Below, one piece after another: positions 4,228 through 30,298 of a DNA stretch of 31,747 nucleotides (positions are counted from its first letter, which is position 1; each line of letters starts with the position of its first letter). Origin of the DNA: a virus; IMG/VR virus record IMGVR_UViG_3300027741_000176, positions 1-31,747 of that record. One strand, 5' to 3'. A program made the translations under genes and the position numbers. The notes under the pieces are model-generated. The model saw nothing but the letters and a program-made list of their open reading frames with translations. It was not told the DNA's origin and ran no database searches.

Positions 4228-4751
4228 GGTATTACACTTACACACATGCCTCTCCTGATGGCAAAGTTTTTTACGTTGGCAAAGGAACGGGTCACCGGGC
4301 TTTTTCTATGGGTAAACGGTCTTGGATTTGGCGGGAAGTGTTTGAACAACAAAATGGTATACTTATTCAAATTGTTTCACGTTTTGAAACAGAAAAAGAA
4401 GCCTTTAACCATGAAATGGCATTAATTGAATATTATAAAGAACAAGGTTGCAAATTAGTCAATTTGTCAGAAGGCGGTCCGGGGCCATTAGGATTTATAC
4501 AGTCAGAAAAAACCCGTTCATTAAAACGTGATAAACTGCTTGGTTTTAAACATAAGGATATTGTTTGCCCTAATTGTGGTAAAACTGGCGGAGAAACTTC
4601 TATGAAGCGTTGGCACTTTGATAAGTGCAGAGGATTAAAGATTTACAAATCCCGCGCCACGGTAAACGGCAAACGTGTATTTCTTGGAAATTACGCTACC
4701 AAAGAAGAAGCTAACGTGGTAAAAGAACGATATTTAGCGGAGTTGGTTTAA
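4224..4751 (+). CDS. GIY-YIG homing endonuclease with zinc-finger and AP2/NUMOD-like DNA-binding tail
   Basis: A 175-residue free-standing endonuclease. The catalytic domain (residues 1-90) has the paired motif as YTY (4-6) and YVGKG (17-21), followed by His24/Arg25, the metal-binding Glu region HEMALIEYY (63-71) and VNLSEGGPG (79-87). The specificity tail has a Cys115/Cys118/His131/Cys135 zinc finger (CPNCG) and a final segment with RATVNGKRVFLGNYATKEEA, like the AP2/NUMOD modules of HNH and GIY-YIG homing enzymes. An ATG 12 bases upstream is possible, but the ATGA overlap with the fibre stop favours 4224. The gene looks AT-richer than its neighbours and splits a fibre cassette, consistent with acquisition as a mobile nuclease. 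Its cleavage target is unknown. Confidence 0.85.
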   Translation: MRYYTYTHASPDGKVFYVGKGTGHRAFSMGKRSWIWREVFEQQNGILIQIVSRFETEKEAFNHEMALIEYYKEQGCKLVNLSEGGPGPLGFIQSEKTRSLKRDKLLGFKHKDIVCPNCGKTGGETSMKRWHFDKCRGLKIYKSRATVNGKRVFLGNYATKEEANVVKERYLAELV

Positions 4752-9992: not shown

Positions 9993-10922
9993 GTGAATTA
10001 CACGGATTACCTTAACCAAATATCTACTTTGGCGGTTGTTCCCACGACTGATACCAACTTCTTGACCATTTTGCCGCAAGCAATCAATTATGCCCAATTG
10101 CGTATGCAACGGGATATCGATTTCTTGTCAACACAAGTGTACGACTCAACATCGTACACTACCACTTCCGGCAGCAATCTGGTCACAATACCTACGGCGG
10201 CGTTCATTACGTTGCAGACGATTCAGGTAAATAACAGTGGTGTAAACTATCCATTGACGCCAGTGGCTAAGGAATATATCCAATCCGTATATAATAGTAC
10301 GGCCAGTTCAGGGGTTCCAAGTGTCTTTGCTGTGTATGGCGGTGATTCGGCCACGACTGGAAACACAAGCCAGTACATTCTTCTTGGGCCGTATCCTAAC
10401 GCATCTTATCCACTAACTTTAACGGGAACGGTTCATTCTGCCCCGCTTGGGTTCTTGCCCGCTATTTCTACCGTATCCGCACCATCTACAACCGCCACAA
10501 TTACCTTTTCGTCGGCTCATGGGTTGACGACGGGCAATACGGTTTACCTGAACAATTTTGCGCCATCCACTTATAATGGCCCGTACACATGTACAGTAAC
10601 TGGTACAACTACCATTACGATTACATTGCCGTCTGCGTTGGGTAATCCGACATCCATCGGAACCGCTACAAACGGCAATAACTCCACTTTCATATCCACG
10701 TATCTTCCTGATATTTTTATTGCTGCATCTATGATTTACGTTGGCGGCTATCAGCGTAACTTCTCTTCTACTGGTGCTGATCAACAAATGCCTGTAAACT
10801 GGGAACAGCAATATCAGGCTCTGTTGAAGGGTGCTATGGTGGAAGAGTATCGTAAAAAGTTCCAATCCGCCGCTTGGGGGTCACAGTCACCGTCGCCTAT
10901 TGCTACACCGCCAAGGAATTAA
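9993..10922 (+). CDS. Phage adaptor / head-tail connector-like protein with FCCH-like insert
   Basis: A 309-residue protein of the family often annotated as phage adaptor (SU10-type). It starts at GTG (9993) with NYTDYLNQISTLAV and has the typical early segment LPQAINYAQLRMQRDIDF (about 28-45). The C-terminal helical part has YLPDIFIAASMIYVGGY and WEQQYQALLKGA. Between them, residues about 158-232 are an inserted beta domain (ITFSSAHGLTTGNTVYL ... YTCTVTGTTTITITLP), also present in the genes at 805 and 10926. Adaptors of this kind join the portal to the tail nozzle. The weak upstream AAGTAGG may lower its translation. Confidence 0.68.
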   Translation: MNYTDYLNQISTLAVVPTTDTNFLTILPQAINYAQLRMQRDIDFLSTQVYDSTSYTTTSGSNLVTIPTAAFITLQTIQVNNSGVNYPLTPVAKEYIQSVYNSTASSGVPSVFAVYGGDSATTGNTSQYILLGPYPNASYPLTLTGTVHSAPLGFLPAISTVSAPSTTATITFSSAHGLTTGNTVYLNNFAPSTYNGPYTCTVTGTTTITITLPSALGNPTSIGTATNGNNSTFISTYLPDIFIAASMIYVGGYQRNFSSTGADQQMPVNWEQQYQALLKGAMVEEYRKKFQSAAWGSQSPSPIATPPRN

Positions 10923-10925
10923 CCT

Positions 10926-13184
10926 ATGGCACGGAGTACCCTGAAACTCATTCCGGGCGTTGATGTAATCAAAACCCCGGTTTTGAACGAAGCGGCGTTG
11001 TCATCAACCAACCTTATTCGGTTCCTTCCAGACAGGAATCAGCTTGGTTTGCCACAGAAGTTGGGCGGATGGGTAGCGTATTATAACGCACCATTAACTT
11101 CCACCGTCCGCGCCCTAAAAGGTTACGCTGATCTCAATGGCGTAAACCATTTGGCTATTGGCTGCACATCTGAATTGGCACTTCTGACCAGCGGAAATTT
11201 GCAAGATATTACCCCTCTTATTTATGCGGATAATATTGCGCCTAATTTTTCTACGACTGTTGGGTCTACAACGGTTACGGTTATTGATCCAAACTTAACT
11301 GCCTCAACATTGGATTACGTTGAATTTATTACCCCGGTGTCTGTGGGCGGGATTGTTCTTACGGGTCCTTATCTTATTACTTCCGTTGCGGGGACGACTT
11401 ACACGATTACCGCTGCATCTCCAGCAACGTTTACGGTTTCTAAAGCAGTTATTGTTGGGTCTATTTCCAGCACAACATTATCCGTAACTTCCGTTACCAG
11501 CGGCACATTGGTCATCGGCCAATCCCTGTCTGGCACTGGCGTAACAACTGGCACAACCCTTACGGCGGGGGCGGGAGCAAGTTGGACAACAAGCATTAGT
11601 CAGTCTGCTGGGTCTACGACGATTACGGCTTACGGCGGGTCTGTATATCAATTTTCTACATCCTCCGGATCACAGGTTGTAACTTGCCTATTTGCTAACC
11701 ACGGTTATTCTGCGGGTAGTCAATTTTATGTAGGCGTATCCACGTCCGTAGGTGGCTTGGTTGTTTATGGCCTGTACACCGTTTTATCCGTAACGGATGC
11801 CAATACATTCACATTTTCCGTAGGTAATACCGCCACATCAACGGCTGGCCCAGTTCCCATTAATTCAGGGCAAGCAAGCATAAATTATTATAACGCAGTC
11901 AGCGCCCAACCTATTGGTACGGGGTACGGCGTAGGTGGTTATGGTGTTGGCGGGTATGGCCTTGGAACGTCATCCACGGCTGCACCGGGAACGCCTATTA
12001 CCGCTTCAGATTGGTCTTTGGACAATTTTGGACAGAACTTGATTGCTTGTCCCGCTGGTGGCGCAATCTATTCTTACACCATTAATTCTGGCGTAGCATC
12101 CGCACAGTTGGTTAGTTCACAGGCTCCATTAGTTAATGATGGCGTATTTGTCGCTATGCCACAACGGCAGGTGGTAGCTTGGGGATCGTCTTTTACGCTC
12201 CAACAAGACCCTCTTCTTATTCGTTGGTCAGATGTTTCCGATAGTACGGTTTGGATTGGAACTGCCCAGAATCAAGCGGGTAGCTACCGGATTCCTACGG
12301 GTTCTAAAATTGTAACCTGTGTTCAGGCCGCGCAACAGGGTTTGATTTGGACGGATTTGGACCTTTGGGCGATGCAATATATCGGTGCGCCATTGGTGTA
12401 CGGATTTAACAAAATTGGGGCAAATTGCGGTGCGATTAGTCGTAAATGCGTTGGTCAGTTAAATAATACCGTTTATTGGATGTCCCAAAAACAATTCTTC
12501 ATGAACGCTGGTCAAGGTCCTCAACCTATGCCTTGTCCAGTTTGGGATGTGATTTATCAAAATTTAAAAACAGGAAATGATGCAAACGGGATTCCGTATA
12601 CGCAACATATCCGTTGCGGAGTTAACTCTCAATTCAATGAAATTACGTGGTATTATCCTTCCACCAACAGCGCAAATGGTGAAAATGATTCATATGTTAA
12701 ATACAATACGGTTCTCAACCAATGGGACTTTGGCTCTTTGGGTCGTACTGCTTGGATTGATCAATCTGTGCTTGGGCCTCCCATTGGTTCTGGAACTGAT
12801 AATTACCTTTATCAACATGAAATAGGCAATGACGCCGCCAATGGTACTCAGGCGGTGGCTATGAACTCCACCATGCAAACGGGCTATTTTGAGATAGCTA
12901 ACGCTGATAATATTATGTTTGTTGACCAAATTTGGCCGGACATGAAGTGGGGTACGTATTCCGGAACCAATAATGCTACGGTCAATATGACGTTTTATGC
13001 GACAAACTATCCGGGAGACACCCCAATAGTTTACGGGCCGTATCCTATGACGCAAGCCACTGAATACATATCCGTCCGTATTAGGGCGCGTTTGATAGCA
13101 ATTAACATATCATCTAATGACGTAGGCACATTCTGGCGGCTTGGCGGCATACGCTACCGCGCAGCACCTGATGGGAAATACTAA
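10926..13184 (+). CDS. Large tail hub / P22 gp10-like packaged-DNA stabilisation protein
   Basis: A 752-residue virion protein. The N-terminal 60 residues (LIPGVDVIKTPVLNEAALSS, NLIRFLPDRN, LPQKLGGW) are a well-conserved start recalled from podophage proteins related to P22 gp10, which form the tail hub or nozzle plug. Residues about 112-168 and 238-315 are beta domains of the FCCH-like kind. A short YGVGGYGVGGYGLG repeat lies at about 333-347. The conserved core follows: SDWSLDNFGQNLIACPAGG, PLVNDGVFVAMPQRQVVAW and FVQAAQQG-like strands, suggesting a propeller. It follows the adaptor gene by three bases and overlaps the next gene as TAATG, in the expected P22-like order. The gp10 name is an inference from context and recalled motifs. 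Confidence 0.65.
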   Translation: MARSTLKLIPGVDVIKTPVLNEAALSSTNLIRFLPDRNQLGLPQKLGGWVAYYNAPLTSTVRALKGYADLNGVNHLAIGCTSELALLTSGNLQDITPLIYADNIAPNFSTTVGSTTVTVIDPNLTASTLDYVEFITPVSVGGIVLTGPYLITSVAGTTYTITAASPATFTVSKAVIVGSISSTTLSVTSVTSGTLVIGQSLSGTGVTTGTTLTAGAGASWTTSISQSAGSTTITAYGGSVYQFSTSSGSQVVTCLFANHGYSAGSQFYVGVSTSVGGLVVYGLYTVLSVTDANTFTFSVGNTATSTAGPVPINSGQASINYYNAVSAQPIGTGYGVGGYGVGGYGLGTSSTAAPGTPITASDWSLDNFGQNLIACPAGGAIYSYTINSGVASAQLVSSQAPLVNDGVFVAMPQRQVVAWGSSFTLQQDPLLIRWSDVSDSTVWIGTAQNQAGSYRIPTGSKIVTCVQAAQQGLIWTDLDLWAMQYIGAPLVYGFNKIGANCGAISRKCVGQLNNTVYWMSQKQFFMNAGQGPQPMPCPVWDVIYQNLKTGNDANGIPYTQHIRCGVNSQFNEITWYYPSTNSANGENDSYVKYNTVLNQWDFGSLGRTAWIDQSVLGPPIGSGTDNYLYQHEIGNDAANGTQAVAMNSTMQTGYFEIANADNIMFVDQIWPDMKWGTYSGTNNATVNMTFYATNYPGDTPIVYGPYPMTQATEYISVRIRARLIAINISSNDVGTFWRLGGIRYRAAPDGKY

Positions 13185-13605: not shown

Positions 13606-15381
13606 ATGAGCGACCCATATAGCAATGATGATGATATGACAGGTGGAGGTTCATACCTTCCATCGCTTCCTAAGTTATATCAAAATATTTTCAATAGCTT
13701 AGGATTTGCTCCTAACCCCGGTCCCGGCCCAGTTCACAAAGAATTAGATATGCGGAATTATTTCCGCAAATTTGGCACTACTCCAGCGCAGACTGTTCGA
13801 CCTGCTGCGGTAGCCCCTAATCTTAACCGGATACAACGATATCCTGACCATACGGGTGCGGCTCAAACCGGGTTTGGACCATATGGAAGAATGCCGCCAA
13901 ATAATGAAAATTATGGCAATGGATTAGATTATTCTGGTTACTCTCCTACAAATGCAGTAAAAATTAATAGGAATATTAACCAAACGTATGGTTCAAGAGG
14001 TTACGGCGCTGGCCTTTATGCGTCTTCCCAACAATACCCAGATCAGCAAATATTTTCTGACCAGCCCAGCGTAGGCGATAGGTCATCGATGCCTGTTTAC
14101 CCGCAGCGTCAGTCCAGCCCACCAATGTATACGCCGCCAGAGGCAAATGTGCCTATGCCGTCTTTTATGACAAACAGGGCATCGCAACAAGTTACTGACC
14201 CATTGCAGCGCACAATGCTTGGTTTAGATGATGACGGAACGCAAACAACACAGCCATCCGGCGGTTCGCAGCTTGCTGATCCACGGGCTGTAAGGGCATT
14301 AGACCCGTCTGCACGTCCTTATCCCCCGCGTCCGGATGAGGGTGGCGGCTCCGACAACGCTCCCTTAATTACCAGTGGCATGATTCCATCCACGGGTCGG
14401 GCGCATATGACCTCGCCTATTATCCCCAAAGATGCCGCCGCATCTAAGGGCCGCGCCCACATGTCGGCACAATCTCAAAGCCAACCTGATTTACCCGCAT
14501 CTAAAGAAGCTGGTGATACGGGTGAATTTCTTAACAATGATCCCAACGATATGCGTCCGGGGTCTTTGGGCGAAGCCCGTAAATTGTTTCCGGGTCGCCC
14601 ACTCCAACAGGCTATTTACTATACTGAACCATCTCATGGAAGAGAAGGTGGCGGATCAATGCGCCGCATTGGCGTAGGCGCGGATACGTCCAACCTAAAT
14701 CCAGATTATGTTGCACGTATTTGGGAACCTGCTGACATGTCTGGCGGGGAAAGATTTATTCGGGGTGCATATGAGACACCGGGCAAAAACCCACTTACAT
14801 ACACGCCTGAAATGGCTTCTGGCGGAGCGGCTGGACAGGCTGATAAAATTGCCCGTGAAAAGGCGACCCCTTGCCATGTTGGTCCTATTACTATGGCAGT
14901 TGGCGGGCGTACTGATCATATTCCTATGAACGTGCTTGAAGGTTCATATGTGTTACCAGCCGATATTGTTTCCGGATTGGGCGAAGGCAATACGCTTGCT
15001 GGCACTAAGTTGATCAACAATATGTTTAGCAGTGGTCCATTTGGTGTAAGTGCAAAAGCCCCTAAATTTGCACAAGTTTCTCAGCCAAGTTTGGGTCAGT
15101 ACGGCTCTATGCAAAAAATGTTTGGAAGCAGTCAAAATTTAGGGCAAATCAACGCGCCGCAAAAGGCGGCTGCTGATGGTGGTCCAGTTTTATCTGGAAA
15201 ATACCGTCCAGTTCCTATTGTCGCTGCTGGCGGCGAATACGTCATTCACCCTGATGTCGTTAAAAAATTAGGTAATGGCAATATGGATAGGGGCCACGAT
15301 TATCTGGACAATTTCGTAAAAGGCGTCCGTAAGCATCTTGTTAAAACTCTTAGCAAGTTGCCCGGACCAAGGAGAGATTGA
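13606..15381 (+). CDS. Large internal / structural protein with tandem C-terminal repeats
   Basis: A 591-residue protein. The N-terminal 300 residues are Pro, Gly, Ser and Tyr-rich and look disordered. Residues about 320-380 are more ordered (LGEARKLFPGRPLQQAIYYT). The C-terminal 170 residues carry two related units: GGRTDHIPMNVLEGSYVLPA then LGEGNTLAG, and GGPVLSGKYRPVPIVAAG then EYVIHPDVVKKLGNGN. It ends in a basic VKTLSKLPGPRRD. A GExV-(H/L)P segment is recalled from the C-termini of tape-measure and other phage structural proteins, but the role here is not established. It begins after a GGAGG site, leads the block of large internal proteins and overlaps the GNAT-like gene by one base (TGATG). 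Confidence 0.6.
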   Translation: MSDPYSNDDDMTGGGSYLPSLPKLYQNIFNSLGFAPNPGPGPVHKELDMRNYFRKFGTTPAQTVRPAAVAPNLNRIQRYPDHTGAAQTGFGPYGRMPPNNENYGNGLDYSGYSPTNAVKINRNINQTYGSRGYGAGLYASSQQYPDQQIFSDQPSVGDRSSMPVYPQRQSSPPMYTPPEANVPMPSFMTNRASQQVTDPLQRTMLGLDDDGTQTTQPSGGSQLADPRAVRALDPSARPYPPRPDEGGGSDNAPLITSGMIPSTGRAHMTSPIIPKDAAASKGRAHMSAQSQSQPDLPASKEAGDTGEFLNNDPNDMRPGSLGEARKLFPGRPLQQAIYYTEPSHGREGGGSMRRIGVGADTSNLNPDYVARIWEPADMSGGERFIRGAYETPGKNPLTYTPEMASGGAAGQADKIAREKATPCHVGPITMAVGGRTDHIPMNVLEGSYVLPADIVSGLGEGNTLAGTKLINNMFSSGPFGVSAKAPKFAQVSQPSLGQYGSMQKMFGSSQNLGQINAPQKAAADGGPVLSGKYRPVPIVAAGGEYVIHPDVVKKLGNGNMDRGHDYLDNFVKGVRKHLVKTLSKLPGPRRD

Positions 15382-15854
15382 TGGATTATCCGGTCAGATT
15401 AGCCACTGTTGAAGATGCTGATAACATAATGATTCTTCTTGCTTTGATGCACGAAGAAAATGGTCTATTTGAAATGGACTATGATGCCGTTAGAGACATG
15501 GTAACCAACGTATTAAGTGGCAAAAATGGCATCATTGGCGTTATCGACGGCGAAGAGGGTTTAGAGGCGGCTGTTTGTCTTGTTATTGACAAACTTTGGT
15601 ACGCTAAAACTTGGTGTTTAAACGACGTTTTTAACTTTGTCGCACCTAAATATCGTCGTTCTACAAGGGCAAAATCATTAATTTCTTTTGCCAAAAACTA
15701 TTCTGATCAAGTGGGTATTCCCCTTTTGATGGGTATTGTTTCCAACGTTCGGACAGAAGCAAAAATCAAACTGTTGGAACGTCAAATGAGTAAAGCTGGC
15801 GCGTTCTTCATTTACAATCATGTGAATGAAAAACCTGATAACCATGTACAGTAG
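15381..15854 (+). CDS. GNAT-family acetyltransferase-like protein
   Basis: A 157-residue protein with the GNAT order of elements: an opening strand and helix (YPVRLATVEDADNIMILLAL), a long acidic helix, a central strand (IIGVIDGEE) with the AAVCLVIDKLWY segment, then LNDVFNFVAPKYRRSTRAKS followed by a helix. The usual acetyl-CoA loop R/Q-x-x-G-x-G/A is present only in changed form (RRSTRA), so activity is uncertain. GNAT-like genes are recalled beside ejection-protein genes in podophages. ATG at 15381 has GGAGAG ten bases upstream and is preferred to the in-frame TTG just before it. Substrate unknown; a virion protein is one possibility. Confidence 0.68.
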   Translation: MDYPVRLATVEDADNIMILLALMHEENGLFEMDYDAVRDMVTNVLSGKNGIIGVIDGEEGLEAAVCLVIDKLWYAKTWCLNDVFNFVAPKYRRSTRAKSLISFAKNYSDQVGIPLLMGIVSNVRTEAKIKLLERQMSKAGAFFIYNHVNEKPDNHVQ

Positions 15855-15864
15855 GATTTAGGCT

Positions 15865-18800
15865 ATGGGCTCATTATGCCAAGGATTATTTGGTTCACAG
15901 GCTTCGACGACGTATCAGCCGCCAGAGGCTGTAAAGAACGCCGTAACGGACATTCTTGGCCGCGCAGCAACGCAGTCTAATCAACCATACCCGCAATATA
16001 CCCCAGACACTGCGGCACAGTACTCTAATTACAATGCAGGGTTGCTTGCCCCTATGACGCCTAATCAGGCTCAGGCAGGTCAATCTATCGCTGGTTTGCG
16101 GGGCTATACGGCTCCTAATTTTGGAGCAGCAACTAATTTAGTAGGCGCTGCGGCCAGCCCATTACAAATGCAGCAGTTTTCGCAGGGCGCTGTCAATCAA
16201 TACATGAATCCATATCTTAATGATGTGGTGGGTTCAGCAGTTGCCAACATCAACCAAACCAATGCCCAACAACAGCAACAAGTGTTGGGCAATGCAATCC
16301 AACGGGGCGCATTTGGTGGCGACCGTGCTGGTATTGCACAGGCTGAATTGGCCCGCCAACAGGGCTTGGCAAACAATGCAACGATTGCCAACCTTCTTGG
16401 TCAGGGTTACAACCAAGCACAACAGCAGTTCAATCAGCAACAGCAAACGGACCTTGCTACTCAGTTGCAGAATCGCAATTTGATGACCAATGCAGGTCTC
16501 AACCTTGCAAACCTTGGCACACAGGGTCAGCAAGCCGCCCTGCAACAAGCTAACGCTCAGTACGGATACGGTACGGCAGAACAGCAGCAACAACAGGCTG
16601 GTCTATCGACTGCTTATCAGCAGTATATGAACCAACAGGCATTCCCTTACCAACAACTCAGCTACTACGCTGGCTTGGCATCAGGTGCTGCTCCTGCAAT
16701 GGGCGGGACGACAACTGGCTATTCACCTACTGTCAGCAATGCTGGCGGCCTTTTAGGTGGTCTGTCCATACTTGGTGGGCTTTCCAACCCCGGAGCGGTT
16801 TCCGCTTCTAATCCATATTCTGCGGCATCGGCTGGCATTGGTGCGCTTACTTCCGGTTTTGGAAGTCTCTTTGGCTTAAAAGATGGTGGACGTGTTGAAC
16901 GGGCGTCTGGTGGCCGTACTGGTTATGCAGATGCGGGTGCAGTTCCCGTAAGCCCCGTAACTCAAGCATATAATGATTACAATAATGCAGTCGCTGCGGG
17001 CGCTCCGTATGATGTTCTGCAACAATTGTATCGTAGATATCAGCAGTCATTTCAAGGTGCTACCCCTCCTTGGGAAAAGACAGCAGCCACGGCCAATGCT
17101 CCGGCAGCCGCTAAGGTAAATGCCCCAGTAGCGGACGCTTCTGGAGTAGTAGGAACACCGGGTGGTGGTGGCGGCGGCGAAGGAAATGCCGCAATTACGG
17201 CTCGTAATGCTGATTATTCTCCAGACTTTACGAGCAGCAATGGTCCCGTTGGTGGCGGTGGTTACGGCCCATATGACGCTGGTGGCGGACCGGGCAATAC
17301 ATTTAATTCAGGAGCAATACCCGGCGGTGGTATAATTGGCGGTATTTTAGGTGGATTGTTTGGTGGCCCCCTTGGCGCTTTAGCTGGTTCCGCATTAGGA
17401 AATTACAATCCAAATGAAAAAAACGTAAATACAACCCCATATGATCCAAATTATACAGGCGTTGTATCTTCAATGAGTTCTGACCCGGCTGCATCTGGCG
17501 TAAGTGGTGCAAGAACAATTGGCATTGAAAATCCAGACAGACCAATTGACGAACGTGCAGGATTTTATGGCACACCAACGGATAACGGCGCAGACCTTCC
17601 CGCTGCTAAAACGGCAGGTGAAGGATATGGCGGTTTTATGCCATCAGGTTCAGTAGGTTCCCGTTCAACAGGATTTACAGGAGATTATGCAAAAATAGCA
17701 CATGATCTTGAAGTGCAATATAGTTTGCCGGAAGGGACGTTGGCTGGAATTGCAAATGTTGAAACTGGCGGAACATATAATCCAAACATTTCTAACCCAT
17801 CGGGAACTTCTAAAGGGTTAATGCAATTTCAAGACCCGACTGCTCAAAAATATGGTTTGCAAAATCCATTTGATCCAATTGCGGCGTTAACTTCTGCTGC
17901 TCAATATTCCGCAGATATTGCAAATGCTCAAGGCAATAAGGCAACCGTTGGAAGTATTGGTCTTGCTTATAATCAAGGTTTAGGTGGATTTAACGCATTG
18001 AAAAATGCCGATCCAAATGCTTTGGCCGTTGATGTTCTTGGTCGGAATTTTACAAGCAACCGATTTGGCTTGCCAATGGATGCTACTGTTTCCGATTATA
18101 TGAATGCGGCGCAAAACGCTTATTCAAAGGGCGCTATTCCAACTCCCTCTCAAACTTTTGATCCAGCTAATCCGCCTTCGCCTCCTTCTAACCCTGAATA
18201 CTCCAAAGGGTTGGCTGACATACAAGGTGCAAGTGGCGTTCCGGGGGTCGCCGGAATGGCTCCTGACGGCAAGGGTCTGGGCAATGCAGGTTATAGTCTT
18301 GGCCTTCCTGACGCGGGAGCTGCCCCTGCACGGGATACGTCAAGTGATCGCGCCAATATTTATAGCGAACCAGCGGGTCCGCCAGCGCCTGATAATTCTG
18401 ACAATTCAAATGATCAAGGTGGCTTTGGTGATGCAAGAACCAATGACTCCAGTTCTTCAGAAAAACGTGGTGGTCGTATTAAGCCGCATCATTATGCTGC
18501 TGGCGGGTATGAGCCATTTCATATGCAATATGGGATGCCAACTGAAACGGACATTGAACAACAAGCACAGGACTATTCTGGTTCCGGCGCTGGCGTTCTT
18601 GGTCCACAACTCCAAGCTTTGGCGGCAAAGGGCGTTCTTCCTTCAGCTAAGGGCGGTCGTATCCATGCTCAAACAGGCACTGGCATATCTGTTGATGAAG
18701 CGCCTGTTGTTCATAGCTGGGATGAACCAGACGACAATGCACAGGTTTCAAAAAATAAACCAACAACCACAGCACCTGTTGTTGAAAGCAGATTCAAAAC

Positions 18801-20433
18801 TCCCTTGCAGCAGTTAGGCAGCACTATTTCAAGCGCAGTAAAAAGCGCAGATGAATATATTGCACCAAAGGCAGAAGCGGTGGTTAAAGCTGCCACAGAA
18901 CCACAATATGTTGCTGATCCAAATTACGTTGCCCCAAAGTATCGTTCTATGGAAAATGCTGGACCGTATGATGCCGCCCCAACACAGGCGGCAGAATTAA
19001 GGAAGGCATCGGGAACGTATACCAAGCCATACGAAAAAACTCAGCCAATTGATCCCACCAAATCATTTGCTGTGGATCAAGGCGCAGGTAATGTTGCTGA
19101 TGAAGGTCAAGAGGCCGCACCAGCCGCATCGGCAGCACCTGTTGCGCGGCAACGTGATGTCGCTCCCGGCATTAAAGAATGGTACAACGCGCCGCCTCCT
19201 GTTGATATGCGCCAGATGGCTGCATTAAATTTTGGGGCTAACTTGCTTGCTGGTGGTGATTTTGGTTCTAACCTTGCCCGTGCAGGGCATGATTACGCCA
19301 ATACAATCCTTGCACAGCAAGATCAGCAACGTGCCACGATGCGGAATGAATCTGAGTCTGCGCTTCACCGGTCGCAGGGCATTGAAGCTGGTGCAAGAAC
19401 GGCCAAAGAACGCATTCAGCCAATGGGCCTTGGGTATTCTATTGTTTCTGGCACAGGCACTCCGGACGACCCAATCATTCTTACTGGCATTCAAGGCGCA
19501 GATGGTCAGGCTGGCGGGACAAACGTTCAAGGCGGCGCAGGTGGTGTTGGCGGGAAAACCGCACAGATTGTAATGAAACAGCCGTATAACGGCGAAACTT
19601 ATGTGCCTGACTTCTCCGACAATCCACAGGCGCAACAAACCGCTGCTGCTAATATAACGATGCTTGCCCATCAGGCAAAGGCAGCTATGCCTATGCAAAC
19701 TGAGTTGGCGAAAAAGAATTATGAATTATCTCAAGCGGAAGTTCAGGCGGCAAGACAAGATGCCCGTGCTGCTGCGGATAACATCGTTCCTTATTCGGAA
19801 GTTATGGACGCCATCCATGCCATGCCACAAGGCGGGCCTCTTTCTCCGGGCTTGACTGGTAAGGCCCGTTACACCGCAATTGCAGGTCTTAACGAAGCTG
19901 CAAGAACGGTTGGTATTGATCTTGGGTTGACCGATACAATGTCTGCTGCGGAAATTATGAACAAGTTCGCAACTGCCGCCGCAAACCAAACATCGGAAAG
20001 CCGTGCAGCTAAGTGGCTTGAAACAACCGCCGCTTCGTTGCCTAGCATTGGCTTGAATCTTCCAACGATGCAGAAGCTGGCAGCTAACCAATTTACCGCA
20101 GCGCATACGAAACAAATGTATGCCAATACGGTTGCTAAATTGGCGGCAGAGTCTGATGGTCAAGACCGCGACATGACGGGTCATTTCTATGCAGTTAACC
20201 CACGTCAGAACCAAGTCAAACTTCAAAACGCTATCTACAAGCTGATGAATGCCCATCAGAAGGAAGGTGGTAAAGCAGAAGGCGCTTGGATAAAGAATCC
20301 AGAAACTGGCCGTTATGAAACGCCAATTTCTATGTTCCAACACGGTCAATTAACAGCAGAGCAGTTTGACAAAATATCGTATGATTTGACTGGTATGAAG
20401 AATATGTCTTCGGTCTTTGGCGCTGGACAATAA
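15865..20433 (+). CDS. Giant internal virion / ejection protein with lytic transglycosylase domain
   Basis: A 1522-residue protein. Residues 1-300 are Gln/Ala-rich helices with the family motif IQRGAFGGDRAGIAQAELAR (about 151-170), recalled from phage DNA-transfer proteins. A Gly-rich linker with GLKDGGRVERASGGRTGY follows (about 336-353). Residues about 608-740 are a soluble-lytic-transglycosylase fold: catalytic Glu633 in NVETGG, SKGLMQF (649-655) and AYNQG (701-705). Two further GGR motifs lie near 866 and 927. The last 500 residues are helical and alanine-rich. Such domains open peptidoglycan locally while DNA enters the host, and the protein probably travels with the DNA, as T7 gp16 or P22 ejection proteins do. 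The ejection role is inferred. Confidence 0.75.
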   Translation: MGSLCQGLFGSQASTTYQPPEAVKNAVTDILGRAATQSNQPYPQYTPDTAAQYSNYNAGLLAPMTPNQAQAGQSIAGLRGYTAPNFGAATNLVGAAASPLQMQQFSQGAVNQYMNPYLNDVVGSAVANINQTNAQQQQQVLGNAIQRGAFGGDRAGIAQAELARQQGLANNATIANLLGQGYNQAQQQFNQQQQTDLATQLQNRNLMTNAGLNLANLGTQGQQAALQQANAQYGYGTAEQQQQQAGLSTAYQQYMNQQAFPYQQLSYYAGLASGAAPAMGGTTTGYSPTVSNAGGLLGGLSILGGLSNPGAVSASNPYSAASAGIGALTSGFGSLFGLKDGGRVERASGGRTGYADAGAVPVSPVTQAYNDYNNAVAAGAPYDVLQQLYRRYQQSFQGATPPWEKTAATANAPAAAKVNAPVADASGVVGTPGGGGGGEGNAAITARNADYSPDFTSSNGPVGGGGYGPYDAGGGPGNTFNSGAIPGGGIIGGILGGLFGGPLGALAGSALGNYNPNEKNVNTTPYDPNYTGVVSSMSSDPAASGVSGARTIGIENPDRPIDERAGFYGTPTDNGADLPAAKTAGEGYGGFMPSGSVGSRSTGFTGDYAKIAHDLEVQYSLPEGTLAGIANVETGGTYNPNISNPSGTSKGLMQFQDPTAQKYGLQNPFDPIAALTSAAQYSADIANAQGNKATVGSIGLAYNQGLGGFNALKNADPNALAVDVLGRNFTSNRFGLPMDATVSDYMNAAQNAYSKGAIPTPSQTFDPANPPSPPSNPEYSKGLADIQGASGVPGVAGMAPDGKGLGNAGYSLGLPDAGAAPARDTSSDRANIYSEPAGPPAPDNSDNSNDQGGFGDARTNDSSSSEKRGGRIKPHHYAAGGYEPFHMQYGMPTETDIEQQAQDYSGSGAGVLGPQLQALAAKGVLPSAKGGRIHAQTGTGISVDEAPVVHSWDEPDDNAQVSKNKPTTTAPVVESRFKTPLQQLGSTISSAVKSADEYIAPKAEAVVKAATEPQYVADPNYVAPKYRSMENAGPYDAAPTQAAELRKASGTYTKPYEKTQPIDPTKSFAVDQGAGNVADEGQEAAPAASAAPVARQRDVAPGIKEWYNAPPPVDMRQMAALNFGANLLAGGDFGSNLARAGHDYANTILAQQDQQRATMRNESESALHRSQGIEAGARTAKERIQPMGLGYSIVSGTGTPDDPIILTGIQGADGQAGGTNVQGGAGGVGGKTAQIVMKQPYNGETYVPDFSDNPQAQQTAAANITMLAHQAKAAMPMQTELAKKNYELSQAEVQAARQDARAAADNIVPYSEVMDAIHAMPQGGPLSPGLTGKARYTAIAGLNEAARTVGIDLGLTDTMSAAEIMNKFATAAANQTSESRAAKWLETTAASLPSIGLNLPTMQKLAANQFTAAHTKQMYANTVAKLAAESDGQDRDMTGHFYAVNPRQNQVKLQNAIYKLMNAHQKEGGKAEGAWIKNPETGRYETPISMFQHGQLTAEQFDKISYDLTGMKNMSSVFGAGQ

Positions 20434-20434
20434 A

Positions 20435-23400
20435 ATGGATAATCAAGATTTATTGGGTTCTTTTTCATTAGACAGCCACGTAGCCCCACAAGGTAAAGCG
20501 CCTTCTGGGGGCGCTGGTGCTGCGCCAGAAAAAGCTTCTGATAATATTGTAAATTCATTTTCTTTAGATGAGCCGTCTGGCGTTACTTCTCAAAGAGAAG
20601 AGAAAGAACGGGCGTCAAAAACCAAACAATACAAAGATACGACTGCATCCGACGTTGCAAAAGGACTTGGCGCTGGTGTTGAATTGGGCGCTGCTCAAAT
20701 TCTTGGTTTGCCCGGCGATATTGCCCGTGCTGGACGTTACTTAAAAGAAGAAGGCACATATTACGGCAAGAAGGCGTTAGAGAATTACGGCTATCTGCCG
20801 GAAGGAACCGCTGACGAAGACTGGAAAGCTGTAGAAGAGGCCCGCCAATCTCCTAACCGTGGTTGGGTTGGCCCATTGCCTAGCAGTGAAGTAACGGAAG
20901 CTGCCGCCAAGAAGTATTTGCCGGGGGCTAGTTATGAGCCTGAAAGCCGTGGTGGCGCGTATGCACACACCATTGGTGAATTTGTCCCGACTATCCTTGG
21001 CGGCGAAGGTTCCGCTATTAAGAAACTTGGTACGGCGGCTATCGCTGGTGCAGGTTCTGAAGCTGCGGGACAAGCTACGGAGGGTACACCATACGAAGGC
21101 ATCGCCCGCATAGGTGGCGCTTTGGTTTCGCCGTTTGCCGCAGAGAAAACGCTTTCCCGCCCATTAGGTTCCGTTGGCTCCGCAATGGGTGTTGGCGATG
21201 AGGCTCTTAGTTCTGTTGGCTTGACATCCAGCAATATGGCGGCAAGACAAAAACTTGTCGATGAAGCTGCACGGTTGCAGAAAATTGGTGCGCTATCCGG
21301 TTTGTCAGAATCCGACATTCGTTCGGTTATATCCGACGAGGCTGCACGGGGCGTTTCTCCAGAAAATTCCGTCATTCATCAGTGGTCTGCAATTTCCAAT
21401 TCGCCTACTGATATTGTCAATCGGTTTGTTAAAAACTCCCTTCAAAACTCCAAGGTCCGCCAAGGCGTTGAAGAAATGTATGCTAATGCCAACCGTTCCG
21501 CTGACATGGCGGATGTGGCTGCGGGCAGCATGTTTAATGATATGCATGAAGAGGCCACCGTTAATGCTTTAAACGCTCAACGGCGTTCTCATGGCCTTCC
21601 TGACAATATTACAGAGGCCCCCGCTCCGGAACAAATTCGCAGAACCGCAGAGGAAGTTAAACAGGGCGCTTGGGAACGTGAAGTTCAACCAGTTTTTAAT
21701 AAGCATGAAGTGGTTGATAGCCCTACGCTATCGGCCATGCTGCCTATTGTTAAACCAGAAATGGTTGAAGTTACCAAAAACGATTATAATCGTTTGCGTA
21801 TGGCCCGTGGTGAAAACCCATTCCAATTCCTTACCAAGGACCAAAACAATAAATACCAGACGCAGGGGTTCAACCATCCTACGGGCATGACTAACGGCGC
21901 TCCGCTGGAATACTGGGACATGCTTGCCAATAACTTGCAAGCGTCTCAAAACGTGGCGGATAATCTTATCGGTAAACAAATGCGCGAAGGTGTTGAGCAG
22001 TATTTTACTGCTAAAGGCCTTCCCCATGAGTTGAATACTGCAAAACAATCGTTCCGCAGTGTCCGTGGTGAAACCAACGCATTGGACGCTGGTATGCGGT
22101 TCGTAACGGATGGCGCATATCAAACGAATCCAGCAAAACGGTCTGCCTTCCTAAACCGTTGGAACAAAATGAATGACGTTGAAAAAGGCCTGTATCAGGC
22201 TGGCGTCATGCAACAGGCGTTTTCGACAATTGCTCAGGGCAGCAAGGGATTTGTCAATTGGAAGGGCGTATTGCAGAACCGCGACAACCGCCAATTGCTT
22301 CAAGAAATCCTTAACTTCCGCCCACAGGGCGCACCTGTTAAAGCTGGATCAAGCAATTTTGATAAATTCAATAGCGCATTGAATGTTGCAAATGCATTTA
22401 AGAGGGAAAATGCAAGCCACGTTCTTGCTTCTACCCCAGAGGTTAGGACATTCCTTGGCCGCATATTGTCGACGGGTGATCGTAGTCCGTTGGATATTGC
22501 TTTGCATGCCGCGTACCGCGGCGCGTTCAGCCCTGATCTAGGTTACATTACCTTGCTAAGTGGCGGCTTGGGTTACCTTCGTCAGGTACAAGCTGACCGC
22601 CAAGCATTACGCATGTTGCAAATGTTCAACAGCAAGAACCCTAATGACGCAATTCAGCTTGCACGGGACATTGCTGCATCTAAGGGTCATCAGACAAGCT
22701 GGCAGAAGGTTCAGTCTTTGTTAGACTTCACCAATAAGTCTACCATTAATTTCTACCGCCGTGCTGCCATTGCCGCCAATAGCCAGCAGCCTCAACAGCG
22801 CAAAGAAGGTGGCCGCGTAGGTTACGGTCCCGGCGGCGAGGTTGATAGTCCTGATGACGCCCCGCAGTTCCCTAACCGTAAGGTTAATGAATTAGGTTTC
22901 TATAGCCGTGCTGGTGAAGCGCTTCGTGGCTTTCCTAATCAGGAAAAACAACAGGACATTGCAAAGATAATAAAAACGCTTTACGAAAGGCATGACGTCC
23001 ATCCGGATGAGATGCGTTACACTGGCATTACAACGCCGGAAAGCAATCCCAAGAATATTCAATTATCCGATACGTTTGGCGGCATGGGTGAAATGTCCCC
23101 GGCTGATTTGGCTCAACACATAGAAAGCCAACAACCAAAAATGTATCGGAAACGTATGGGAACGCCACAATACTCAACCCTTTCCATTGATAATCCACAT
23201 CTGTCGGATTACACAGAAGACGTGTACCATTTCCCAGAAAGGAAAATAGATAAGTCTTTAGAATGGCAAGCTGATCCTACAAAATGGACTGTTCACCGTG
23301 ATGAACATGACAATGCAAATGTTCACGACGAAAATAATAATTATTTATCACATGTTAATCAAAAATTTTCGGATGATGAAGCTATCCGAATTATTCATGG

Positions 23401-24610
23401 TGAATGGGCGGAACATAAAAAAGATAAAACAGAATCAGGATTAAATTTTAAAGAACCGCATTTTTCCGGAACTGAGGATTATAATAAATCTGGCTGGATG
23501 AGGCACAATGTAGCTACATTTCCGCCGACGCCAAATAATCCTAACGGTGCAAAATTTAAAAATATTGAAGAATTGCAGCCTCAACGCGCCCAACAGGCCG
23601 AAAAACAAGGATTAAATATTGAACCTTATAATCCTAATAAAGAAGATGAATTGCGTAACCGTTGGAAAGAAGCCAGTGCAGCGGAAGCTAAAGCTACAAC
23701 AGCCGCAGAACGTAAAATTCATGGTGACCGGGCAGATGCATTAAGAAAACAGTATCTTGGCTATAAGACCAACCACTCCGGTAGTTATGGTGGAATTGCT
23801 GACGCACCATATACTAACTCTGTTGAAGCTTCTACCAAACGTTATGTCCGTCAAATGCTAGCTGACGCGGCGAAAGAAGGCATGAGTGGGGTTAGTATCA
23901 CGCCGTGGTACAGAAACGCCGAACGGGCGGGCGCTCAACCCATAGACCAAATTGAACTTACGCATGACACTGATAGAAGCAACCAGCCTATAACGCAGTT
24001 AACTGTAAAAGGTGACAAGTACTCTAAAGACCTTGGCGTATTCCCCCGCCATGATCGTTTGACAGATGACGACATGGAAAGACTACACGATGCTTTTGGT
24101 AAACAAACAACCAAAAGAATTTTGGAGGCCATGAAAGGGTCTAACCAAAAAAAATCAGATGTTGTAATGACGGCTTTGGATGAAGAAAATCCTCTTATGT
24201 TTTCGCCGTCTCAAAATGGTCACGTTATTGATGGTCACCGTTATTATTACCGTGATTATTTGCCCCGTGTTTTAGAAAAAGAAGCCCGCCGCCTTGACCC
24301 TGATGCCAAGGTTCAGGGTTTGTTCCGCTTGGCTGATCCTAAAGGAAAATTTAAGGACAAGATGGGAACCCATCAAGGCATTGTTTTTTCCAAGAAATTT
24401 ATAAAAGCTGCTAAGGCTGGCGGGTTCCGTTCGTTTAAAGACGGCGGCGAAGTAGAACGCCCAAAGCGGGCAACGGGTGGTCGTATTCCGGAAGTGGATA
24501 AATTATTTAAAGCTGCCAAAAAAGAGTTAGATAACTCGACTAAACCTATGCTTAATATACATGATGACCACATCGTTAATGCGCTTAGGATTGCCCAAGG
24601 ACGGATTTAA
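20435..24610 (+). CDS. Giant internal / ejected protein with polyvalent-protein-like C-terminal domain
   Basis: A 1391-residue protein starting at ATG 20435, two bases after the previous stop; an in-frame ATG at 20417 lies inside the upstream gene. The N-terminus has two copies of GSFSLD/NSFSLD (residues 7-12 and about 41-46). Residues about 75-270 are Gly/Ala-rich with amphipathic helices, and 280-780 are helical, recalled from phage ejection proteins. A GGRVGY motif (about 790) precedes a region from about 818 to 1260 resembling a domain of large polyvalent proteins: GFYSRAGEAL, PDEMRYTGI, IEELQPQRAQQAEKQG (Glu1045-Glu1046), then a helix and ITPWYRNAER. The C-terminus has ATGGRIPEVDKLF. Injection with phage DNA is inferred from context. 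Confidence 0.65.
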   Translation: MDNQDLLGSFSLDSHVAPQGKAPSGGAGAAPEKASDNIVNSFSLDEPSGVTSQREEKERASKTKQYKDTTASDVAKGLGAGVELGAAQILGLPGDIARAGRYLKEEGTYYGKKALENYGYLPEGTADEDWKAVEEARQSPNRGWVGPLPSSEVTEAAAKKYLPGASYEPESRGGAYAHTIGEFVPTILGGEGSAIKKLGTAAIAGAGSEAAGQATEGTPYEGIARIGGALVSPFAAEKTLSRPLGSVGSAMGVGDEALSSVGLTSSNMAARQKLVDEAARLQKIGALSGLSESDIRSVISDEAARGVSPENSVIHQWSAISNSPTDIVNRFVKNSLQNSKVRQGVEEMYANANRSADMADVAAGSMFNDMHEEATVNALNAQRRSHGLPDNITEAPAPEQIRRTAEEVKQGAWEREVQPVFNKHEVVDSPTLSAMLPIVKPEMVEVTKNDYNRLRMARGENPFQFLTKDQNNKYQTQGFNHPTGMTNGAPLEYWDMLANNLQASQNVADNLIGKQMREGVEQYFTAKGLPHELNTAKQSFRSVRGETNALDAGMRFVTDGAYQTNPAKRSAFLNRWNKMNDVEKGLYQAGVMQQAFSTIAQGSKGFVNWKGVLQNRDNRQLLQEILNFRPQGAPVKAGSSNFDKFNSALNVANAFKRENASHVLASTPEVRTFLGRILSTGDRSPLDIALHAAYRGAFSPDLGYITLLSGGLGYLRQVQADRQALRMLQMFNSKNPNDAIQLARDIAASKGHQTSWQKVQSLLDFTNKSTINFYRRAAIAANSQQPQQRKEGGRVGYGPGGEVDSPDDAPQFPNRKVNELGFYSRAGEALRGFPNQEKQQDIAKIIKTLYERHDVHPDEMRYTGITTPESNPKNIQLSDTFGGMGEMSPADLAQHIESQQPKMYRKRMGTPQYSTLSIDNPHLSDYTEDVYHFPERKIDKSLEWQADPTKWTVHRDEHDNANVHDENNNYLSHVNQKFSDDEAIRIIHGEWAEHKKDKTESGLNFKEPHFSGTEDYNKSGWMRHNVATFPPTPNNPNGAKFKNIEELQPQRAQQAEKQGLNIEPYNPNKEDELRNRWKEASAAEAKATTAAERKIHGDRADALRKQYLGYKTNHSGSYGGIADAPYTNSVEASTKRYVRQMLADAAKEGMSGVSITPWYRNAERAGAQPIDQIELTHDTDRSNQPITQLTVKGDKYSKDLGVFPRHDRLTDDDMERLHDAFGKQTTKRILEAMKGSNQKKSDVVMTALDEENPLMFSPSQNGHVIDGHRYYYRDYLPRVLEKEARRLDPDAKVQGLFRLADPKGKFKDKMGTHQGIVFSKKFIKAAKAGGFRSFKDGGEVERPKRATGGRIPEVDKLFKAAKKELDNSTKPMLNIHDDHIVNALRIAQGRI

Positions 24611-25077
24611 TGGACCCTTTTACGCTTATAGCTGGCGCTACCGCCATTTATAACTCAATCAAGTCCTCCGTGGATGCGGGCAAGGACGTGATGGAGACTG
24701 CGGAAAAGGTGGGCAATCTTTTCAGCAAAGTTGCCCAAATCGTCACTATTGCGTCAACGCCGCGCAAAAAGAAAATGTTTCAGTCTCAGGCGGAATTTGA
24801 GGCAGAGGCGGTTAAGATTTATGCCGTTAAGGCCAAGGCCCAGCAGATGCAATTGGATGTCAAGAACATGTTTGTGGGTCAGTACGGCCCGGCAGCATGG
24901 GAAGGCATTCAAAGGCAGGTGATTGAAATGCGTAAGGAGGCTGCACGTCAGGCGGCTGCTGCGCTAAAAGAACAAGAGGAGAACCGGAAGGATTTAATTA
25001 TGGTTAGCAGTATTGTTGGTTTTCTGGTACTAGGTATTGGCGCAATTGGCGTTTTTCTTATGATAACGGTGAAATAG
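24610..25077 (+). CDS. Tail-anchored helical membrane protein
   Basis: A 155-residue protein. The first 125 residues are charged, helical and coiled-coil-like, starting DPFTLIAGATAIYNSIKSSV and containing KMFQSQAEFEAEAVKIYAVK. One strong hydrophobic segment (about 128-151, MVSSIVGFLVLGIGAIGVFL) ends the protein, giving a C-terminal membrane anchor. Proteins with this opening are recalled from marine and freshwater podophages next to lysis genes; the function is unknown, with a lysis or envelope role possible from its place before the holin. TAATG overlap with the preceding gene. Confidence 0.62.
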   Translation: MDPFTLIAGATAIYNSIKSSVDAGKDVMETAEKVGNLFSKVAQIVTIASTPRKKKMFQSQAEFEAEAVKIYAVKAKAQQMQLDVKNMFVGQYGPAAWEGIQRQVIEMRKEAARQAAAALKEQEENRKDLIMVSSIVGFLVLGIGAIGVFLMITVK

Positions 25078-28636: not shown

Positions 28637-29260
28637 TTAGCCAAGCTTGGCTTTCAGGGTTTTATAATACTCCTGCAACTCTGAACGATGGCCGGGGAGC
28701 AACATACCAATCTTGTCTTTGTTGTCCGTCGTCCAGTTTGAAAGTTCTTCAGCGTTCTTGCACATGTCCATTGCACCCTTGATAACGCCAAGCAGGTTGG
28801 TGCTATCTTCTGGCTTTAGACCCGGCTCCATTTGCTTTGCAGGGGCCTTGCCCTTGATAGGGCGAAGTTCTGCCGCCTGAGCGGCGTTGCCGTCGTCATC
28901 ATCTTCACCCGCAATGCCAACCATAGCAAACAGGGAATAGCGGCGGGCATAGGTCATTGCTGAACCCATTTCTTGTGGCTTGCCAAAGCCGCCTACTGGA
29001 TAGTCCGATTCTATAAATTGCCCGCTTTTGTGAATGATGCGGGTATTGAGAATGATCACCCCATCCATTACGGACGTGCCTTGTACGAATGTCAGGTCAT
29101 GCTTTGAGAAGCATTCCCGTAGGGCTGTAAGGCCGTCAGACAGGTCTACATAGGCAGACTTGAAGTGGGGGTTGATCTTGGTCTTGGCAGGGTTCTTTAG
29201 CACTCCTTGAGCCTTAATCAGGGCGGCTGCTAGTTCATTGATTGATTCGCTACTACGCAT
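28637..29260 (-). CDS. erf: ERF-family single-strand annealing protein
   Basis: A 207-residue recombinase that anneals complementary single strands, the partner of the exonuclease encoded upstream. ERF hallmarks are clear: SINELAAALIKAQGVL (6-21), NPHFKSAYVDLSDGLTALRE (30-49), then the signature KPQEMGSAMTYARRYSLFAM (94-113) with GIAGEDDDDGN. The C-terminus (about 130-207) is less conserved, as usual. A longer reading frame exists, but ATG at 29260 has AAAGGA seven bases upstream and fits the family's start. One small gene lies between it and the exonuclease. Confidence 0.9.
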   Translation of the reverse strand: MRSSESINELAAALIKAQGVLKNPAKTKINPHFKSAYVDLSDGLTALRECFSKHDLTFVQGTSVMDGVIILNTRIIHKSGQFIESDYPVGGFGKPQEMGSAMTYARRYSLFAMVGIAGEDDDDGNAAQAAELRPIKGKAPAKQMEPGLKPEDSTNLLGVIKGAMDMCKNAEELSNWTTDNKDKIGMLLPGHRSELQEYYKTLKAKLG

Positions 29261-29270
29261 GGTCTTTCCT

Positions 29271-29519
29271 TTAATGTGGTTTCTTGGTCTTATCTCTATT
29301 GGTGACTTCAAATAAAACGCCGTAAGCATTTCCCTTATCCATTGAGAACTTTCTGGCGGTTTCTGGATCACCGATTTGGGTTGCAAGGACAGGTAGCATT
29401 TCTGCTAATCTATCCCGCACAAACTCCCCTTCGTCACGGGGAATCAAAGGATGGACTTCAATCTCAAATCCATCCGGCAACATAAATATTTTGAGTATTT
29501 CAATTCTTTCTGACATCAT
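29271..29519 (-). CDS. Hypothetical early protein between exonuclease and ERF genes
   Basis: An 82-residue protein, not recognised. It begins MMSERIEILKIFMLPDGFEI and continues with acidic/basic helical sequence (RDEGEFVRDRLAEMLPVLAT) and a lysine-rich end (NRDKTKKPH). ATG at 29519 overlaps the exonuclease stop as ATGA, so it is probably translated; a second ATG follows immediately (29516). Its place in the Exo-ERF pair suggests a recombination accessory function, unproven. Confidence 0.5.
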   Translation of the reverse strand: MMSERIEILKIFMLPDGFEIEVHPLIPRDEGEFVRDRLAEMLPVLATQIGDPETARKFSMDKGNAYGVLFEVTNRDKTKKPH

Positions 29520-30298
29520 TCGCCCTTCAGACGAAGTGAACCCCGCTTGTCCCGCTTGATGCTGACGCCATAGCCGTAAGCCTCCGCCATATCTTCTTCC
29601 ACCAAACCTTTCAGGCTGTTGGCGGCTTCATCATATAGCTTCTTGCCGTTGCTATTCATCTTCAACTGATTCGCAAAGCTAGCCCATGCGTTGTTACCCG
29701 TCATGTCAACACGACGAACAGCATCCACAGGGGCCTTGACGGTTATTGCCACTGGCGGTGTGCCACTTTTGACACAATCCCAGAAGCGGCGTTCTGCATC
29801 AATCAGGATGTCGGAATAGATGGCATCCAAACTGATATCAAACTTCTCAAACTTATGGTTACCGAAGAACACCGACAGAACCGCCTTGTTCACACCACAG
29901 ACAAGCATGTTGTGGGTAAGCTGTGGGTAGTAGCGGTCAAGGATTTCATCTTCTTTGGCAAAGGCGGAAACGTGCTTGGCTTCAAACACAGTCTCCCCGC
30001 CGTCGGTTAGTCCATCAAGAGTACAGCCCATAAAAGAATGAACAGCAGAAGTCCGCTGTGTGCCATTATCTGTTACCTTTCTACCAGTCTGCTTCTCAAA
30101 CCATTGAATGTTAAACGGCTCAGTAAACACACCCATCTGGACAGGAAGCACGTCATCCAAGTTAACGTCTTCTTCTTGTCCCGACTTTACCCGCCAGAGG
30201 CGAAGGATGTTTTCTTCGTCTCCGGACATAATTGTATTAGCATCTGAACCGCCCAATAACTTGGAGCGGAACAGTCTCTGTTCTGCGGTTAATGTCAT
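29516..30298 (-). CDS. YqaJ / lambda-Exo-like PD-(D/E)XK exonuclease
   Basis: A 260-residue nuclease that probably resects double-stranded DNA 5' to 3' to expose strands for ERF. Active-site elements of the YqaJ/lambda-exonuclease fold are present in order: GGSDA (16-20), MGVFTE with Glu60, CTLDG with Asp95, FEAKHV with Glu106 and Lys108, and Gln126 in YPQLTHNMLVCG. The C-terminal 70 residues are basic and helical (KGLVEEDMAEAYGYGVSI). ATG at 30298 has GGAGAG upstream. It follows a 62-base gap with promoter-like and operator-like elements, and leads the Exo-ERF group. Confidence 0.85.
   Translation of the reverse strand: MTLTAEQRLFRSKLLGGSDANTIMSGDEENILRLWRVKSGQEEDVNLDDVLPVQMGVFTEPFNIQWFEKQTGRKVTDNGTQRTSAVHSFMGCTLDGLTDGGETVFEAKHVSAFAKEDEILDRYYPQLTHNMLVCGVNKAVLSVFFGNHKFEKFDISLDAIYSDILIDAERRFWDCVKSGTPPVAITVKAPVDAVRRVDMTGNNAWASFANQLKMNSNGKKLYDEAANSLKGLVEEDMAEAYGYGVSIKRDKRGSLRLKGE

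What the first reader, a model, noticed from the sequence alone, without database searches (positions are those of the whole stretch)
22895..24430. Polyvalent-protein-like domain at the end of a probable ejected protein
Residues about 818-1260 follow the element order recalled for a domain of large polyvalent proteins: G-F-Y-S opening, P-D-E-M-x-x-T-G-I, Y-x-E-D-x-Y-x-x-P, H-F, R-H-N-V, E-E-L-Q, later a helix and T-P-W-x-x-x-x-R. The usual E-E-x-Q-S-D-W hallmark is altered to EELQPQR, so the site may be degenerate or changed. Such proteins are thought to enter the recipient cell with the DNA and act against host defences. This would be the most interesting function in the window.
Basis: partly seen in the sequence, partly recalled or inferred. 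Interest (0 to 1): 0.65.

Follow-up and report, generated by a model that had tools for sequence, protein, structure and literature searches.

The report
Swappable effector cassette in phage ejection protein
The end of a phage protein that is probably injected into bacteria carries an exchangeable module, an altered member of a widespread but unnamed phage domain with a predicted acetyltransferase-like fold, and close relatives of the phage carry an ADP-ribosyltransferase, another module or nothing in the same slot.

Summary
Residues 818-1345 of the 1397-aa ORF (20417-24610, +) are homologous to the widespread "EEIQSDW" domain of phage polyvalent proteins: a profile of 69 canonical members, built without the window, scores 53 bits; the best of 1000 shuffles scores 8.9. 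The hallmark is truly altered, EEIQSDWHQ to EELQPQRAQ, but the domain is not decaying: it is the best conserved large part of the protein, with dN/dS about 0.2. Pfam has no model for it. AlphaFold models of the window and of a canonical member fold well; their weak Foldseek hits outside the family are mainly GNAT acyltransferases.

The main new result is that the domain is a swappable cassette. It lies between "GG-x-V/I" motifs, with a constant ejection-type N-module before it and a constant 44-aa tail after it. Relatives with the same module and tail carry ART-PolyVal there. Two phages 98.2% identical from the tail onward differ in the cassette. In a second N-module family one contig has an empty slot, and four nearly identical contigs with ~88% identical flanks carry a 769-bp insert. 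Virion delivery, acyltransfer and any anti-defence role are inferred, not shown.

The parts
20435..22807 (+). constant N-module of the probable ejection protein (res 7-797; likely start ATG 20435 just after the stop of the upstream ORF)
   Evidence: relatives L224 (69%), L226 (63-65%), L004 (45%) share it whatever the cassette; follows a DNA ejection protein homologue
22808..22843 (+). 5' border of the cassette, GGRVGYGPGGEV
   Evidence: GG-x-V/I motif at the same place in all chassis relatives; cassette similarity starts or stops here
22868..24451 (+). cassette: divergent EExQSDW-family domain (res 818-1345), predicted GNAT-like fold
   Evidence: profile match 53 bits against 8.9 for shuffles; model pLDDT 84.3, pTM 0.81; weak Foldseek GNAT hits
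23567..23593 (+). altered hallmark EELQPQRAQ (res 1051-1059; canonical EEIQSDWHQ), end of predicted beta4 and start of the next helix
24443..24475 (+). 3' border of the cassette, GGEVERPKRAT
   Evidence: identity between phages with different cassettes resumes at this border and the tail
24476..24607 (+). constant 44-aa tail GGRIPEVDKLF...ALRIAQGRI
   Evidence: same tail behind two unrelated N-module families and several cassettes
15865..20433 (+). upstream ORF, DNA ejection protein homologue (phrog_4287, E 6e-13) with a further PHROG match at res 618-757
   Evidence: homologous to internal virion protein D of MW202675
15378..15854 (+). solo acetyltransferase-like gene of the ejection module
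   Evidence: phrog_1249 E 7.5e-6; homologues in MW202675 and CRP-901
24610..25077 (+). gene directly downstream (155 aa); the same gene follows different cassettes, so it is not a cassette-specific immunity gene
28637..30298 (-). ERF-family and YqaJ-family recombination genes, a possible route for cassette exchange (inference)
   Evidence: Pfam PF04404 and PF09588 above cut-off

Best explanation
The finding is an exchangeable effector cassette in a phage protein that is probably ejected with the DNA. A constant N-module and a constant 44-aa tail carry a variable domain between GG-x-V/I motifs. In this phage the cassette is a divergent member of the EExQSDW polyvalent domain family, which most likely has a GNAT-like fold: the invariant EE.Q lies at the end of beta4, followed by a helix with Q....G. 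Proposed working: the protein is packaged and ejected with the DNA, and the cassette then binds CoA or acyl-CoA and modifies or binds a host protein early in infection; phages swap cassettes by recombination in the flanking constant parts, perhaps with the ERF/YqaJ system. Shown by sequence: homology, altered motif, purifying selection, cassette replacement, an empty and an occupied slot, no cassette-specific gene in the compared stretch downstream. Inferred: virion packaging, injection, GNAT chemistry, host target, role of the GG motifs.
For: Profile match 53 bits against 8.9 for shuffles. Invariant polar residues kept: H1015, R1029, E1051, E1052, Q1054, Q1059, Y1278. Domain 68% identical to L004, N-module 45%, dN/dS 0.22. 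Same N-module and tail with ART-PolyVal in L224/L227 and L226. L004 and L226 98.2% identical over 3995 bp from the tail on, cassettes unrelated. L249 empty, L244 with a 769-bp insert at the same point. ART cassette 75% identical on N-modules with no detectable similarity. Confident models; GNATs dominate the weak fold matches in PDB and among viral models. Ejection-module context.
Against: No fold match to PDB reaches E<0.001, and no GNAT sequence profile matches. The full Q/RxxGxG/A loop of GNATs is absent. The SDWH part of the hallmark is lost, so catalysis by this version is doubtful. The N-module itself has no annotated close relative; only one distant homologue is annotated as a DNA injection protein. 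No virion or transfer data exist.
Confidence: 0.6

Rival explanations
1. Catalytically dead relative: the domain keeps the fold but, with SDWH lost, only binds a ligand or a host protein, as the GNAT-like C-terminal domain of isocitrate lyase 2 binds acetyl-CoA.
For: SDWH replaced by PQRA or PERA in this clade while 76 of 77 relatives keep QSDW; only 23 of 51 conserved columns kept; ICL2 is the top PDB fold match and its domain is a GNAT-like acetyl-CoA sensor.
Against: EE.Q....Q, H, R and Y are kept in all members and selection is strong. It replaces an enzyme-type domain (ART) in the same slot.
Confidence: 0.25
2. Purely structural part: the variable region is a spacer or assembly domain of the ejection protein with no action in the host.
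For: It lies inside a virion-type protein. A slot can be empty (L249), so it is dispensable for assembly of the protein.
Against: The slot is also filled by ART-PolyVal, whose family is predicted to modify host proteins; homologues occur in many other multidomain proteins; conserved polar residues.
Confidence: 0.08
3. Not a GNAT: the EExQSDW domain is an enzyme of another or a new fold, and the Foldseek hits reflect a common alpha/beta core only.
For: E-values 0.009 or worse against PDB, low TM-scores, large insertions.
Against: GNATs dominate the lists of three searches with two models of about 20% identical proteins and two libraries; element order fits.
Confidence: 0.25
4. Assembly artefact: the cassette differences are chimeric joins of metagenome contigs.
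For: All cassette-bearing contigs are metagenome assemblies; L226, L248 and L249 are single contigs.
Against: The same arrangement recurs in separate datasets (L003 and L004; L224 and L227; L244-L247). All junctions are in frame and at the same GG borders.
Confidence: 0.04

Closest known systems
Polyvalent proteins of phages and conjugative elements (Iyer et al. 2017, PMC5512222)
   Same: Large phage proteins with interchangeable enzymatic domains (ART-PolyVal among them), predicted to be injected early; mosaicism reported for Helicobacter prophages.
   Different: Here a single slot in an ejection-type protein with constant flanks, GG borders and a constant tail, seen empty or with different cassettes in near-identical phages. 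The EExQSDW domain was not found in the main text or in Pfam; it may be one of the LPDs in supplements that could not be read.
MuF polymorphic toxins of temperate phages (PMC12226406)
   Same: Constant N-terminal part tied to the virion, variable C-terminal effector.
   Different: No MuF domain by Pfam; the variable part is followed by a constant tail; no cassette-specific immunity gene next to it in the L004/L226 pair.
T4 Alt, injected ADP-ribosyltransferase
   Same: Model for an effector carried in the head and injected with DNA; sister phages hold an ART in the same slot.
   Different: Alt belongs to another ART clade (R-S-E); the window's cassette is not an ART.
GNAT superfamily (SSAT, Hat1, Eis, TacT and KacT toxins, ICL2 C-terminal domain)
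   Same: Predicted order beta2-beta3-beta4-alpha3-beta5-alpha4-beta6-beta7; weak Foldseek hits to these.
   Different: Large insertions, no full Q/RxxGxG/A loop, no sequence-profile match.

Membership tests
EExQSDW polyvalent domain family | Profile-level similarity over the whole domain and order of elements | tested here: met
   53 bits over res 802-1301, best shuffle 8.9; alignments A2 and A3
EExQSDW polyvalent domain family | Hallmark EExQSDWHQ intact | tested here: not met
   EELQPQRAQ; EE.Q and the last Q kept, SDWH lost. I therefore call it a divergent homologue, not a canonical member
Polyvalent proteins (Iyer et al. 2017) | Several domains of disparate activity in one polypeptide | tested here: inconclusive
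   N-module plus one cassette and tail in the window; ART plus a second domain in L243 and L251
Polyvalent proteins (Iyer et al. 2017) | Transfer into the host with the DNA | not testable with these tools
   only gene context
GNAT superfamily | GNAT fold | tested here: inconclusive
   confident models, GNATs dominate weak hits, best E 0.009 in PDB and 0.008 in the viral library
GNAT superfamily | Pyrophosphate-binding loop Q/RxxGxG/A after beta4 | tested here: not met
   read in the sequences: canonical members have GRxxGY, the window AEKQGL
GNAT superfamily | Sequence-profile match | tested here: not met
   no GNAT family among the 25 Pfam families listed for the 60 members; no PDB sequence match
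GNAT superfamily | Acyl-CoA binding and acyl transfer | not testable with these tools
   needs protein
MuF polymorphic toxins | MuF N-terminal domain | tested here: not met
   no Pfam family at E<=1 in the whole protein
MuF polymorphic toxins | Variable effector on a constant part | tested here: met
MuF polymorphic toxins | Adjacent cognate immunity gene | tested here: not met
   L004 and L226 are 98.2% identical for 4 kb downstream although the cassettes differ

The most novel reading that the evidence does not exclude
A phage-borne exchangeable effector system without immunity genes: one ejection-protein slot, bordered by GG motifs and a constant tail that may be a packaging or processing signal, is loaded by recombination with ART, a new GNAT-fold family (the EExQSDW domain, hundreds of viral contigs) or other effectors.
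Probability: 0.45. Interest if true: 0.78.

Novelty: new variant of a known kind. Interest (0 to 1): 0.64.

Why it matters
A defined slot with empty, ART and GNAT-like versions in closely related phages is a natural experiment: exchanging only the cassette would show what an injected effector does for a phage. The constant tail and GG borders may also point to how such proteins are packaged or processed.

Tried and rejected
Pfam and PHROGs on the whole protein: no hit. tblastn in phage records: no hit for the domain or the N-module. DNA pattern for the EELQP.RAQ variant: of seven stretches two were the known sister contigs; in the other five neither profile found a relative, so the variant was seen only in this clade. 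The fetched regions of MW202675, OR003939, MW202879 and CRP-901 lack the domain. GNAT by sequence: no supporting Pfam match among 60 members, no PDB sequence match. The bacterial genome scan gave one confirmed relative, in an Opitutae MAG. GG-motif enrichment at domain borders of canonical proteins is only 2-3 fold and partly from related loci, so it is not used as proof. The literature library holds none of the motif strings searched; searches for ejection protein plus polymorphic toxin, and for polyvalent plus internal virion protein plus ADP-ribosyltransferase, gave nothing on such a slot.

Full report
WHAT IS THERE. The window is a 31.7-kb virus record. It encodes a GcrA-like protein, so an alphaproteobacterial host is plausible. 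The ORF at 20417-24610 (likely start ATG 20435) follows an ORF matched by a DNA ejection protein profile (15865-20433, phrog_4287, E 6e-13). It stands downstream of a homologue of phage stabilization proteins (10926-13184, 50% identical to MW202675) and of a solo acetyltransferase-like gene (15378-15854, phrog_1249). The related records MW202675, MW202879 and CRP-901 also have an annotated acetyltransferase gene between stabilization-type and internal virion genes.

CHECK OF THE OBSERVATION. Pfam and PHROGs find nothing in the 1397-aa protein. I therefore sampled the canonical domain from IMG/VR by a degenerate EEIQSDWHQ DNA pattern and built a profile from 69 diverse members without the window. 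It hits window res 802-1301 with 53 bits and the sister contigs L003/L004 with 66-70 bits; 1000 shuffles of the same protein reach 8.9 bits at most. In joint alignments S(FYS), Y.E, H, R, EE.Q....Q, G, P and Y are invariant or nearly so including the window. What differs is SDWH to PQRA (sisters PERA), W281 and D401 (numbers refer to L087). In a sample drawn with an anchor outside the motif, 76 of 77 readable members have QSDW. A DNA search for the variant found no further relatives.

NOT A DECAYING SITE. Between window and L004 the domain is 68% identical and the part before it 40-50%; split at the GG motif, the cassette is 68.9% and the N-module 44.8% identical. dN/dS in the domain is about 0.22, with synonymous sites near saturation in places. 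It is the best conserved large part of the protein.

FOLD. AlphaFold2 gives confident models for the window domain (pLDDT 84.3, pTM 0.81) and for the canonical L087 domain (88.2, 0.81). No PDB match reaches E<0.001. For the canonical model, 49 of the 50 listed PDB hits are GNATs or ICL2 and its C-terminal domain; the ICL2 authors report that this domain resembles GNATs (PMC6788997). For the window model about half of the top 20 are GNATs (KacT, TacT2, GmvT, Hat1, acetyltransferases). Against viral models, the first 28 hits look like the same kind of phage protein, and the named hits beyond are mostly N-acyltransferases (probability up to 0.84). The predicted order beta2 (YxE), beta3 (HxR), beta4 (EExQ), helix, alpha3, beta5 (TPW/TTG), alpha4 (FYD/YYRD), beta6, beta7 fits a GNAT core with insertions. 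I take a GNAT-like fold as likely (about 0.75) and active acyl transfer by the window version as open (about 0.4). No Pfam profile covers the domain; the two GNAT families described for polyvalent proteins are RimI-like (PMC5512222).

THE CASSETTE. N-module relatives L224, L227 and L226 keep the N-module and the 44-aa tail but carry ART-PolyVal in place of this domain (63.8 and 32.8 bits in L224 and L226, cut-off 31.2). Window and L224 are 86.5% identical in DNA over a 3.2-kb stretch that covers the end of the upstream gene and the first part of the N-module, and 95.9% from the tail on, with no DNA similarity in the cassette. L004 (this domain) and L226 (ART) are 98.2% identical over 3995 bp that begin at the 3' border, while their N-modules are about 45% identical in protein. 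The tails show the same: L004 and L226 are identical, window and L224 97.7%. A tail search finds the same tail behind a second N-module family without detectable similarity to the first (L244, L249, L241) and on separate effector ORFs (L243, L251). Slot contents: this domain, a divergent relative (L248, 39 bits), ART-PolyVal, an ART-like YHGT domain (L244-L247, by eye), unknown domains (L241, L252), or nothing (L249). L249 and L244 align at 88-89% on both sides of a 769-bp insert whose ends lie at the GG codons. An ART cassette is 75% identical on N-modules that show no similarity to each other (L226 and L243). MW202675 has a tail-like end (E 3e-4) preceded by SGGRV and no cassette.

HOW IT MOST LIKELY WORKS. 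The N-module would place the protein in the virion and pass it into the cell; the cassette would act there. ART and GNAT-type enzymes both modify proteins, and T4 Alt is a known injected ART (PMC5512222 section 9). In L004 and L226 the 4 kb downstream are nearly identical although the cassettes differ, so no cassette-specific immunity gene follows within that stretch; this fits an effector for the infected cell rather than a toxin-immunity pair. ERF and YqaJ genes in the window offer a route for recombination. The GG motifs may be linkers or cleavage sites; nothing here decides. Shown: homology, altered motif, selection, cassette replacement. Inferred: packaging, injection, acyl transfer, target, anti-defence role.

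NOVELTY. Domain shuffling in polyvalent proteins is known. A defined slot with constant flanks, an empty and an occupied state and near-identical backgrounds, and a fold lead for the EExQSDW domain, I did not find described (open-access library only, and the supplements of PMC5512222 could not be read). I rate it a new variant of a known kind.

LIMITS. The cassette-bearing contigs come from metagenomes, and L226, L248 and L249 are single contigs; the other arrangements recur in separate datasets. No coordinates of the models were available for measuring an active site.

Noticed in passing
window 15378-15854 (+): A solo acetyltransferase-like gene (phrog_1249) in the ejection module; MW202675, MW202879 and CRP-901 have an annotated acetyltransferase gene in the corresponding place.
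   Followed up: partly
window 104-802 and 9993-10922 (+): Two separate genes match the SU10 adaptor family (PF24175, 42.8 and 50.8 bits).
   Followed up: no
window 4212-4751 (+): Homing-endonuclease-like match (phrog_314, E 6e-10; weak GIY-YIG Pfam match) among structural genes.
   Followed up: no
L241:2620-6156: Carries a second, partial tail copy (res 916-943) upstream of another cassette, as if two cassettes had been placed in a row.
   Followed up: no
L243:2-2887 and L243:2863-4551; L251:48-2714 and L251:2663-4336: N-module and effector plus tail are split into two overlapping ORFs; both N-module ORFs end with a similar short end, H(G)xHVGSNVxFTG.
   Followed up: partly
L030, L025, L243, L251: PHROG families phrog_7348 and phrog_873, described as endolysin, match the EExQSDW domain or the effector region; such annotations probably mislead.
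   Followed up: no
window 15865-20433 (+), res 341-352, 869-930: GGRV/GGRI motifs also occur in the upstream ejection protein.
   Followed up: no
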